Shown one piece after another: positions 57,958-63,905 of a DNA stretch of 64,000 bases (positions within the stretch are counted from its first letter, which is position 1; each line of letters starts with the position of its first letter). A program made the position numbers and the translations under genes. This stretch comes from Mansonella perstans (taxonomy: Eukaryota > Nematoda > Chromadorea > Rhabditida > Onchocercidae). The notes under the pieces are model-generated. The model saw only the letters and a program-made list of their open reading frames with translations, searched no databases and was not told the origin of the DNA. Where the stretch lies: NCBI GenBank assembly GCA_037074765.1, contig JBAMDO010000057.1:62001-126000 (forward strand), written 5' to 3'.

Positions 57958-60583
57958 TTACTGACTATCACTACCACTTGGATATTTTTCTGCACTGCAA
58001 TCTGGAAAAAATCTCGGTGGCACTTCTAATGTACCATCGTAGTTGGGATCTGGTAATTTTGAACGATCTATATCAGAATAGTAAGGATGTTTGAGAAGTC
58101 TTTTGGCTGATATACGCTTGGCTGGATCATACCTAATTAAGAGCTGAAAGCAGAAAAAAGCAACTGTTAGTAGTGAATATAACTTCACGTACTACTAGAT
58201 TTAACATTTATTTTCAAGTTATCCTTGATAATGACAGATATTATATGCATAATGTATTACTGAATTATTTATCAATTAATGTCAAAAAAGTAAGAGTTTT
58301 CAGGATTGTAACTATATTAACTTTGAGTGGGCGTTACAAACAACTATATACGACTTTCACATCAACTCTCACCATTTTCCTAATTTGATGTTTCATTCTA
58401 GATTTCAATAACAAAGTATTGGAACCAATTCTTACAAACCACATAGCAAACTGAACTTTAAAAACATAAAAACTTTTTTAAGTGAATCAATAAACAAACT
58501 CGAATTATGGCGATACCAATGGGATCCAGATAATGCCTGAGTATATCATCAAGACGATCAACTTCATAACGAGGAAATACAATCTTCGAATAAAGTGGCA
58601 TCTCCGATACTCCTTTCCACGTCTCTTCTGTGGGTGTTTTTATCGTTCTGACAAAAGACCATGGTGTTATATAAATTACTATGCAAAATGCAAAATAGTA
58701 AAATAAGAATCAAATAAGAACTTTTCTTTGTCAATGATTGTACGAAAAATTTTAAAAAAAGTTTTGAAATTTTTTTGGAGTTTAAAAATCCTTCAGAACT
58801 GATAAATGCGATATATTGATAAACTGATACAAAATTCATCATTTTATTTGTAAAAGAAAAAAACGTACGAACAAATTTCTTTTATCTGGCCTATTGTTGA
58901 TTCTCCCGGGAAGAGAGCAGTTTTCATGGCCATTTCAGCAAATATGCATCCAATACTCCACATATCGATTGCCGTAGTGTATCGAAGGGATCCAAGAAGC
59001 AGTTCGGGTGCTCTATACCACGGTGTTGCTACCTTAATTTTAGATATATTCACAAATCAGGGCAAGTAATATATGGAAAACAGTAATAATGCAAAAAGGA
59101 TAATTAGTATATCAAATTCCAAAGGCTTGTCATCCCTCTAAAATTCGAATGCATAGAAATATTTTTCGAAGCTTCGTATTTCTAAGTAAGTTAGTTAAAA
59201 ATAAAATTTAAGTTAGTCATGACGATAAATATACTCACTGTGGCTGTATAAGCACGTGTTGGCAATTCAGCCATCCTTGCTAAACCAAAATCAGCAATTT
59301 TGATAACTCTGTCAGTATTAATTAAGAGATTCGTTGGTTTCATATCACGATGCAGGATGGATCGTTGATGACAATAGCACATTCCTTGAAGGATTTGATA
59401 TTGAAATAATTTCTGCTAAAATAAATTAATTTGACGATAGATTGATTTTTAAATACTAAATTAATTTATAAATACCGCTAATTATATTACTACCTTGACT
59501 ATGCATTACTATTTGATACCGATTTTAACAAATATCTATAGTAAAATACGAGATTTTAATCAGTTTCAAAGATACAAGTGCAATTGAAATGTATTTAATA
59601 TGCTTTAAAGAGTAGTCAGTAGCCCTGCATTAGACGGATATTATTTACTCCTAATACCGTTGTCATTTACTACATGTATATCTAGTTCGGTATTCATTGA
59701 CGGCAATGGAATTGTACGATGATCAAATGGTGGCATAAAAAGCAAATTTAAATGGTAAACGTTACAAGCCATCGTTCCATAAGGACATGCGGGGGTAGTT
59801 GCCTTATATATTGCTTCAAATCCATATATAGGTATTCGAAAGCCAAGTGTATACCTGTTTCACCAATAATTACTTCTTCAAGTCTGAAAATATCTTTATT
59901 TTATGTCACCATTTGATTCCTGATATAAATTTAAAACTAATTTTTATGCAAAAATGTAAAATGTAAGTAAAAATGCTAATACTGAAAAAAGAAATGTATT
60001 ACTAAACTAATATTATTACACTAACAAAACAAAAATACTTTGCGTTTCGAATTGAAATAACAGAATTGCTAATCCTGATTACTTACCTTACTATATTTGG
60101 ATGATTTAATTCTCTCATAATTGATACTTCACGTATAGCATGAGTAGTAATTGTACCCTCAGGTACATTACGGTAAGCAATGCCTTTCAAGGCAACTATT
60201 TTCCCGGTCCGAATGTTAACTGCTTTGTGAACAACGCCGAAAGTACCTTTTCTCATACACATTCATTTTAGAGCAATCTTATGATTAGATAGGAATAAAA
60301 TGTATTACAAAATATTTAATTAACTATTTAAAATAGCAATGAAAAATAGTACTTTTCAAATAGTAAAATGAAAAAATAATATCATTGAAAGAGTAAGAGA
60401 TATTTTTATTTAACAATTAGTGGTATTCTATCGATCATTTTATATTATTAAAATATTTATAAAGTAAAATATATTGCAATAAGAAATTTGTTGAACAAAA
60501 ATAATGCATTAAAAAGGAATGTCACCTTGACCGATCTTCTCTATCAACGAATAGTTCCCTAATCCTAATAAAGTTGTCGTCAT
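57958..60583 (-). CDS. Divergent CDK-family kinase, tandem paralogue of CDK1
   Basis: Seven exons on the minus strand (60583-60526, 60246-60087, 59883-59766, 59415-59239, 59032-58869, 58647-58500, 58143-57958) total 1,011 nt and encode 336 residues. The kinase core is intact: GQGTFGVV at 18-25, VALK Lys40, C-helix Glu59, HRDMKPTN at 134-141 (Asp136), DFG at 154-156, T-loop Thr169, APE at 179-181. Differences from CDK1/2 are Phe22 where Tyr15 normally sits and a degenerate PSTAIRE helix (TITTHAIRE, one residue longer). The catalytic loop is also changed (M and T for L and Q), and PWYRAPE replaces LWYRAPE. The C-terminus carries an extra tail (PPRFFPDCSAEKYPSGSDSQ). Intron positions and phases match those of the neighbouring CDK gene. 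It is probably an active kinase with altered cyclin choice and no Wee1-type control; this is inference. Confidence 0.88.
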
Positions 60584-62011: not shown

Positions 62012-63905
62012 TCAGACATATCGAGAGGGTAAAACCAATGTTCCATCATAATTGCCAGCTGGAAGTTTCTTTCGGTCAACATCATCAAAGTATGGGTTCT
62101 TCAACAGCTGTTTTGCTGAGACTCGCTGTGCCGGATCGTAAGTAAGCATATCCTATTAAGAACATATAATAAATGCTAAATTCGAAATAATTTTCATATA
62201 AAGTAAATTATTAACGCTTGAAAACTTCGAGAATTCAAAATGTATTGAATTAATCCTTACGCGCAAAATCCTAATGCCTTCGGGATCCATGTAATCATCA
62301 AGGATTTTGTGGAGTCCATCTTCCTTCCATTGCGGGAATGACATCTTGAAATCTGGAAGATGAGTAACTCCGTGCCAAATATCTTCGGTAGGAGTCGACA
62401 TTATTCTGAAAGGAAAGAAAATAGAAAAGATAGCTAGAAAATATCAGCATAAATCGAAAACAAACCGGAAAATGCGGAAAATCTGATCAATTTCCGAATC
62501 ACCCTGAAACAATGGTACTTTTGTGGCCATTTCAGCAGCAATACATCCAATGCTCCATATATCAACTCCCATTGAATAGCGAGTTGCGCCAAGAAGCACT
62601 TCAGGAGCTCGATACCAGAGGGTGACAATCTGTTGAAGAAAATAATGTAATATACTGTGATCTGAAGAATATTTTCCGCGTAAACTTCGTGTCTACTGAA
62701 AGTAAAAGCTAGAAATGAAGCAACTTACTTCATGAGTATAAGCTCTTATCGGAATACCGATAGCTCTTGCAAGACCGAAATCTGCAAGCTTAATGGCACC
62801 ATTTTGGTCCACCAATAAATTCTGTGGTTTCAAATCACGATGAAGAACGCGCCTCTGATGGCAGAAACAAATAGCTTGCAATATTTGATATAAGTAAGAT
62901 TTTTGCTGTAACAAATAAACTTTTAATAATCTATCATCAGTTAGACATGTGATAACCATCTTTATAAATACATTTTCCTTCCGCTTCATGATCACTTATG
63001 GAAGGGAAATTGCAAAAAATCCACTGACCACTTCTTTATTCATCAGCTCACTGTCAGGAACTGTATCGATATATTTCTTCAAATCCATAGAGAGATATTC
63101 AAAAATCAAGTATAACCGATTCTCTTCAAGTATGATTTGCTCAAGGCTGAAAACATGAAATTGGGATCTAGTATTATATATCTGGACAATAATGCACTAT
63201 CTTCTCTATAATTATTACATCCACAGTTGCCTGCAGAATATTTCGGTATTTAAACAAGTATTTCCATTTATAAATTCTGGCAAAATACATTTTTCCTGTC
63301 AAAATTTCCTACAAAGTGACCAAAGAATATATATCAATATAAAACTAACGCAACAATATTTGGATGTGTTAATTCTCGAAGCAATGAGATTTCTCGAATT
63401 GCTGTTGCTGGCACACCTTCATCTTCATTTTCCAAACGAATCTTCTTCATTGCAACCATCTTTCCTGATCGTTTATCGACACCTTTGTAAACAACTCCAT
63501 AGGTTCCTGATAAGATGAAAACTAATTAATGTCTTCACAAAAATGTTTTTTGTAAATTAGTTCAGAATCTAAATTAAGACGAATTACATACTACTAAAAT
63601 ACTACATCGCAAATGAACAGGAAACAGAAGAAACTGCATGATGCAACTGAAATAAAAACTCAAAAAATTAGAACACCAGGGAATATTAGCATGGCGGTTC
63701 AATCCACCAATATTCATAATAATGCCATAGATTTATTTGCCAACTAGTAAAATCGAGCAATTCCAAGATTATTCGAGTATTTTTGTCTGGCATGCGGCTA
63801 AACCACTATCAACTGGGATATGATAAGTAATTTCAGAAAAATACCTTCGCCAATTTTTTCAATTCGACTAAAACTGTGTAAAGCGCTAGTATCTTTTGAT
63901 TCCAT
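62012..63905 (-). CDS. cdk-1: Cyclin-dependent kinase 1 (Cdc2-type)
   Basis: Seven exons on the minus strand (63905-63845, 63506-63350, 63146-63029, 62905-62729, 62629-62466, 62405-62261, 62152-62012) total 963 nt and encode 320 residues. Landmarks are GEGTYGVV at 19-26 with the inhibitory Thr and Tyr both present, VAMKK Lys41, and the cyclin-binding helix EGVPATAIRE (PATAIRE instead of PSTAIRE). Further on come HRDLKPQN at 134-141, DFGLARAIGIPIRAYTHE with T-loop Thr169, TLWYRAPE, GDSEIDQIFRIFR, and LPAGNYDGTL near the end. CHQRRV before HRD and AIGIPIR strongly match nematode CDK1 over CDK2. It drives mitotic entry with cyclins A/B and is restrained by Wee1/Myt1 phosphorylation of the loop. 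The start ATG at 63905 leaves a short 12-residue lead before the kinase fold. Confidence 0.93.

What the first reader, a model, noticed from the sequence alone, without database searches (positions are those of the whole stretch)
57958..63905. Tandem CDK1 duplication with a copy that has lost Tyr15 and PSTAIRE
Both genes have seven exons with the same intron positions and phases; exons 3, 4 and 5 are identical in length (118, 177, 164 nt). That shows tandem duplication. The downstream copy keeps every catalytic residue and the T-loop Thr but has Phe for the Wee1-target Tyr, TITTHAIRE for PSTAIRE, and HRDMKPTN for HRDLKPQN. A CDK1-derived kinase free of inhibitory Tyr phosphorylation and with a new cyclin interface would be unusual.
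Basis: partly seen in the sequence, partly recalled or inferred. Interest (0 to 1): 0.78.

Follow-up and report, generated by a model that had tools for sequence, protein, structure and literature searches.

The report
Filarial CDK1-derived kinase lacking Tyr15
Next to its normal cell-division kinase gene, this parasitic roundworm carries an old, intact and fast-changing copy that has lost a main inhibitory switch and the usual partner-binding motif, one of several such copies found in this worm group.

Summary
On the minus strand lie two seven-exon kinase genes: a CDK1 (A, 320 aa) and, 1.4 kb downstream, a divergent copy (B, 336 aa, 53% identical). All six introns agree in position and phase. 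B keeps the catalytic residues and T-loop Thr, but has Phe for Tyr15, no PSTAIRE, and altered cyclin- and CKS-facing sites. One correction: A itself reads PATAIRE.

The host is a filarial nematode (A is 91% identical to Onchocerca). B is not a private oddity: Loa, Cercopithifilaria and Acanthocheilonema have intact orthologs (68-69% identical), all with Phe15 and without PSTAIRE. In Onchocerca flexuosa a remnant of B follows A, so the tandem is old and B has decayed there. The tree puts B inside a filarial CDK1 expansion with families C, D and a pseudokinase-like E; whether A is B's closest sister is unresolved. Families C and D have also lost or changed Thr14, and Tyr15 in some species.

Most likely B is an active kinase free of Tyr15 inhibition and of CKS, with a changed activating partner. 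Partner and tissue are inferred. The nearest precedent is the CDK1 amplification of the tunicate Oikopleura.

The parts
62012..63905 (-). Gene A, canonical filarial CDK1, 7 exons: 63905-63845, 63506-63350, 63146-63029, 62905-62729, 62629-62466, 62405-62261, 62152-62012; 320 aa; GEGTYG, PATAIRE, HRDLKPQN
   Evidence: spliced model, recovered by an own spliced aligner; 90.6% identical to Onchocerca, 92.7% to the partial Wuchereria protein
57958..60583 (-). Gene B, divergent CDK1-derived kinase, 7 exons: 60583-60526, 60246-60087, 59883-59766, 59415-59239, 59032-58869, 58647-58500, 58143-57958; 336 aa
   Evidence: spliced model; N-terminus MTT, full length and start agree with Loa, Cercopithifilaria and Acanthocheilonema orthologs; Pkinase domain E 2.2e-66
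60087..60246 (-). B exon 2: Phe at the Tyr15 site and the changed PSTAIRE region (EGTITTHAIRE, one extra codon against A)
59239..59415 (-). B exon 4: catalytic loop HRDMKPTN, DFG, T-loop RAYTAT with the activating Thr kept
58869..59032 (-). B exon 5: VATPWYR for IVTLWYR, and GESTIGQ where CDK1 has GDSEIDQ (CKS-facing)
61110..61259 (.). 46-base tandem repeat, 3.2 copies, in the 1,428-base gap between A and B
   Evidence: gap length

Best explanation
B is a lineage-specific, catalytically competent kinase descended from CDK1 in filarial nematodes. Shown by sequence: CDK1 descent by DNA duplication, intact reading frame in four species, kept catalytic residues, kept T-loop Thr and the Arg residues expected to hold its phosphate, loss of Tyr15, loss of PSTAIRE, loss of the GDSEIDQ stretch. 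Inferred: it is switched on by T-loop phosphorylation and a partner that pushes helix C in, but the partner is not the standard cyclin B with CKS; it cannot be held by Tyr15 phosphorylation (Thr/Ser14 may still serve); it therefore runs as a Tyr15-independent CDK in some dispensable or sex/germline-specific division, since several species have lost it while keeping A.
Against: No expression, binding or activity data for B. Position 14 is still Thr/Ser. Hydrophobic residue at PSTAIRE Ile and the RE pair are kept, so ordinary cyclin binding is not excluded. The T-loop of the model is below pLDDT 50. A remnant in O. flexuosa, and no B protein from Brugia, Wuchereria, Onchocerca, Dirofilaria or Setaria among the best 120 hits of two searches (capped lists), show that B is dispensable. 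Lysine 238 is also lost in C and D, so not every CKS-side change is special to B. dS between A and B is saturated: NG86 gave no dS and YN00 failed.
Confidence: 0.55

Rival explanations
1. B still pairs with an ordinary mitotic cyclin and does part of CDK1's normal work (subfunctionalised CDK1), only without Tyr15 control.
For: RE of the helix, a hydrophobic residue at the Ile position, T-loop Thr and overall fold are kept. Some Oikopleura CDK1 paralogs with changed PSTAIRE still complement yeast cdc28 and work with cyclin B (PMC8832800, passages read). No cyclin expansion was seen in this genome: 7 exon-level matches at 5 places, and a cyclin-B-like query hit only C92 and C178.
Against: PSTAIRE letters differ even between B orthologs, with one extra residue in two of four; GDSEIDQ lost in 4 of 4; R123 lost in 4 of 4.
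Confidence: 0.3
2. B is a relaxed, dispensable duplicate on its way to decay everywhere, with no special role.
For: Remnant of exons 3-4 after A in the O. flexuosa protein P0121, with the end of exon 3 read in the other frame and Glu for the catalytic-loop Lys; other paralogs of the own genome carry in-frame stops in our models (C27a, C27b, C27c); fast evolution (69% against 91-93% for A).
Against: Full-length frames with 17 of 17 checked catalytic positions kept in four species; third-position excess; conserved N-terminus.
Confidence: 0.13
3. B belongs to an established other CDK class (CDK2, CDK5, CDK16).
For: PSTAIRE is not CDK1-like.
Against: Tree, AU rejection of B with CDK2 (p 0.014), intron set, CDK2-, CDK5- and CDK16-like genes found elsewhere in the genome.
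Confidence: 0.02

Closest known systems
CDK1 paralogs of Oikopleura (odCDK1a-e; PMC8832800, abstract and passages read)
   Same: Lineage-specific amplification of CDK1 in an animal, with change of PSTAIRE, activation loop and cyclin interface, and division of labour in germline and embryo
   Different: There all paralogs keep a recognisable P.T...RE helix and cyclin B was duplicated too; here B has lost the motif outright, has Phe15, and no cyclin expansion was seen. Tyr15 is not named in that text (0 hits for Tyr15, Y15 or T14).
Canonical CDK1 (human 4Y72; C. elegans p34cdc2, P0170)
   Same: Fold, catalytic residues, T-loop Thr, intron set shared with filarial CDK1
   Different: Tyr15, PSTAIRE, GDSEIDQ, HRDLKPQN lost or changed in 4 of 4 B proteins
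Plant CDKB (named in PMC8832800)
   Same: CDK1-like kinase with variant PSTAIRE and M-phase role
   Different: Independent origin; CDKB keeps P[P/S]T[A/T]LRE (quoted from that paper)
Brugia malayi: two cdk-1 orthologs, WBGene00230408 and WBGene00230411 (PMC7787461, passages read)
   Same: More than one cdk-1 in a filarial worm; both expressed in the ovary's proliferative zone, one used as its specific marker
   Different: Which families these are is not told; no B protein from Brugia was seen here

Membership tests
CDK1 (cdc2) | Groups with CDK1 in a tree, apart from CDK2, CDK5, CDK16 | tested here: met
   21 filarial rows incl. B one clade 100/100 within CDK1 rows; B with CDK2 rejected p 0.014. 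B with CDK5 or CDK16 was not tested by AU.
CDK1 (cdc2) | Catalytic residues K33, E51, HRD, K130, N133, DFG | tested here: met
   kept in 4 of 4 B proteins
CDK1 (cdc2) | Activating T-loop Thr161 | tested here: met
   kept in 4 of 4
CDK1 (cdc2) | PSTAIRE helix | tested here: not met
   THAIRE, KPAVLRE, EPNVLRE, EPNVVRE in the four B proteins
CDK1 (cdc2) | Inhibitory Thr14 and Tyr15 | tested here: not met
   Tyr15 is Phe in 4 of 4; position 14 Thr in one, Ser in three
CDK1 (cdc2) | CKS-binding surface (GDSEIDQ; assignment recalled) | tested here: not met
   GESTIGQ, GQSQMSQ, GSSPTGQ, GTSSIDQ; binding itself not testable here
CDK1 (cdc2) | Binds cyclin B, drives M phase | not testable with these tools
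   none
Tandem duplicate of gene A | A and B each other's nearest sisters | tested here: inconclusive
   free trees put B elsewhere in the filarial clade, but A+B is not rejected (p-AU 0.236, 0.328); best partner in the reduced tree is D, 92/77
Pseudokinase | Loss of K, HRD Asp or DFG Asp | tested here: not met
   all kept in B

The most novel reading that the evidence does not exclude
Filarial nematodes are a second animal lineage, after Oikopleura, that broke the one-CDK1 rule, and repeatedly removed the Thr14/Tyr15 brake from the copies; B would be a CDK1-derived kinase driven by a new partner, without CKS and without Tyr15 control, in the worm's germline or embryo.
Probability: 0.2. Interest if true: 0.75.

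Novelty: new variant of a known kind. Interest (0 to 1): 0.52.

Why it matters
CDK1 is described as single and PSTAIRE-invariant in animals other than Oikopleura (PMC8832800). Filarial worms appear to break both statements: the main copy reads PATAIRE, and several derived copies exist with one or both inhibitory sites changed. This gives natural variants for asking which parts of CDK1 control are needed, and, if germline use is shown, a worm-specific kinase family in parasites of people and animals.

Tried and rejected
CDK2/5/16 membership of B: rejected by tree and introns. Pseudogene in this species: rejected. Pseudokinase: rejected for B. dN/dS of A against B: saturated, NG86 returned no dS, YN00 failed. 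Sister of B: left open (B outside all other filarial rows also not rejected, p 0.261). Non-coding likeness of A and B: four blastn matches, three on exons 3, 4, 5 and one of 28 bases between intron 6 of A and the stretch upstream of B, taken as chance. A co-amplified cyclin: not seen, but the search is exon by exon and a lower bound; labels of two cyclin pieces by PDB likeness: C92 cyclin B1 E 8.8e-14, C217 cyclin A2 E 3.6e-6. Papers; two of these returned nothing, and 27 and 32 showed 20 of 42 and 20 of 252. None of the listed titles or abstracts describes filarial CDK1 paralogs, but PMC7787461 names two cdk-1 orthologs, and the kinome tables of PMC5137501 could not be opened, so I do not claim that the expansion is unpublished. 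PMC8080662 and PMC5137501 (passages) gave nothing on CDK1 copies. Rows left out of the tree: chosen were 34 named proteins of the 220 ids listed; left out among others were the fused or chimeric models P0004, P0007 and P0121 and near-duplicates. A_Wuchereria lacks exon 4 and was left out of the invariant set.

Full report
What is there. The window is contig C57:62001-126000 of a 75.7 Mb, 539-contig assembly. Two kinase genes lie head to tail on the minus strand. The upstream one, A, has seven exons and 320 aa. The downstream one, B, has seven exons and 336 aa. Stop of A to ATG of B is 1,428 bases. All introns are GT-AG. The two proteins are 53.3% identical over 319 aligned residues. The six introns sit at the same residues and phases.

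Host. A is 91% identical to Onchocerca proteins and 92.7% to a partial Wuchereria protein, so the host is a filarial nematode.

B is a real gene and not private. A search of about 5.8 billion proteins found orthologs in Loa loa (P0001), Cercopithifilaria johnstoni (P0002) and Acanthocheilonema viteae (P0003). A profile of the four scored these three at 735, 721 and 719 bits; the next row, a fused Syphacia model, had 514. All four share the start MTT, the length and the catalytic core. Only the best 120 rows are listed in each search, and none of them is a B protein from Brugia, Wuchereria, Onchocerca, Dirofilaria or Setaria.

The tandem is old and B has decayed in one lineage. The O. flexuosa protein P0121 is a CDK1 of type A that runs on into a tail. 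The tail matches exons 3 and 4 of B, with the B-type HRDM. The end of its exon 3 part follows the other reading frame, as seen by comparison with the window's own alternative frame, and Glu replaces the catalytic-loop Lys. This is a predicted protein of a draft genome, so the frame shift is likely, not proven.

Descent. In a tree of 43 rows, A, B and three more filarial families (C, D, E) form one clade, 100/100, apart from ascarid, pinworm, rhabditid and tylenchid CDK1. B is one clade, 100/100, on a stem of 0.82. B with CDK2 is rejected (p-AU 0.014), while A+B (0.236), B+C (0.352) and B outside the other filarial rows (0.261) are not. With long and decayed rows removed, B joins D at 92/77 and A+B is still not rejected (0.328). 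So CDK1 descent is firm and the exact branching is not. The intron set agrees: 73.2, 112.0 and 226.2 occur in A, B, the C-type gene and E on C85, and not in the CDK2, CDK5 and CDK16 models.

What changed in B. Tyr15 is Phe in 4 of 4; position 14 is Thr in one and Ser in three. PSTAIRE is replaced by four different stretches. GDSEIDQ is lost in 4 of 4 but kept in 3 of 3 A and 5 of 5 database D proteins; C keeps G[D/E]SEI in 5 of 5. Of 121 positions invariant in 19 CDK1 rows, 28 are changed in all four B proteins, against 8 in C (5 proteins), 20 in D (5) and 5 in the ascarid paralogs (2). The 17 catalytic and loop positions checked are all kept. The change is therefore directed at regulation rather than catalysis. 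The assignment of these positions to cyclin and CKS contacts is recalled from CDK structures, not computed.

The inhibitory sites are eroded in other families too. C has Ala or Gly for Thr14 in 5 of 5. D has Ser or Ala at 14 in 4 of 4 that cover it, and Phe15 in 2 of these 4 (Brugia, Wuchereria). A keeps Thr14-Tyr15 in 3 of 3. Ascarid paralogs keep both.

Selection. A-B differences are 35%, 27% and 62% at codon positions 1, 2 and 3. As most change lies on the B branch, B has been under constraint. dS is saturated, so no ratio is given.

How it probably works. B keeps the parts needed for T-loop activation and catalysis. It lacks the Tyr15 brake. Its helix C and CKS face are rebuilt. I infer an active kinase whose partner differs from cyclin B-CKS, in a role that some filarial lineages can do without. 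Germline use is a guess from Brugia, where two cdk-1 orthologs are expressed in the ovary's proliferative zone (PMC7787461); these need not be B. Against a new cyclin: no cyclin expansion was seen here.

Known relatives. Oikopleura has five CDK1 paralogs with changed PSTAIRE and divided roles (PMC8832800, passages). That paper says all other animals examined have one CDK1 with invariant PSTAIRE. The present data do not fit this for filarial worms, nor for ascarids, whose main copies read PATA and which have a second CDK1-like copy. B is thus a new variant of a known kind.

Noticed in passing
L038 (G000:C85, about 190.8-192.6 kb) and L035 (G000:C27, about 131.2-133.0 kb): CDK1-derived genes that look like pseudokinases: HLNLRPANLL for HRDLKPQNLL, AEFR for ADFG, and Lys33 lost (TVR, AVQ). 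The C85 model has no stop from the glycine loop on; the C27 model has one.
   Followed up: partly
L034 (G000:C27, about 65-67 kb and 70-71 kb): Two neighbouring CDK1-like genes of families D and C within about 5 kb, whose models carry in-frame stops; decay or modelling error.
   Followed up: partly
families C and D in Loa, Wuchereria, Brugia, Dirofilaria, Acanthocheilonema, Cercopithifilaria, Setaria proteins: Thr14 is lost in 5 of 5 C proteins and replaced by Ser or Ala in 4 of 4 D proteins that cover it; Tyr15 is Phe in Brugia and Wuchereria D.
   Followed up: partly
P0011, P0019, P0009, P0013, P0033, P0122: The main CDK1 of ascarids, pinworms and filaria reads PATA rather than PSTA.
   Followed up: no
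P0004 (Syphacia muris), P0007 (Toxocara canis): Database proteins that hold repeated CDK1 segments, perhaps fused models of tandem CDK1 copies in other clade III nematodes.
   Followed up: no
window 61110-61259: 46-base tandem repeat, 3.2 copies, between the two genes.
   Followed up: no
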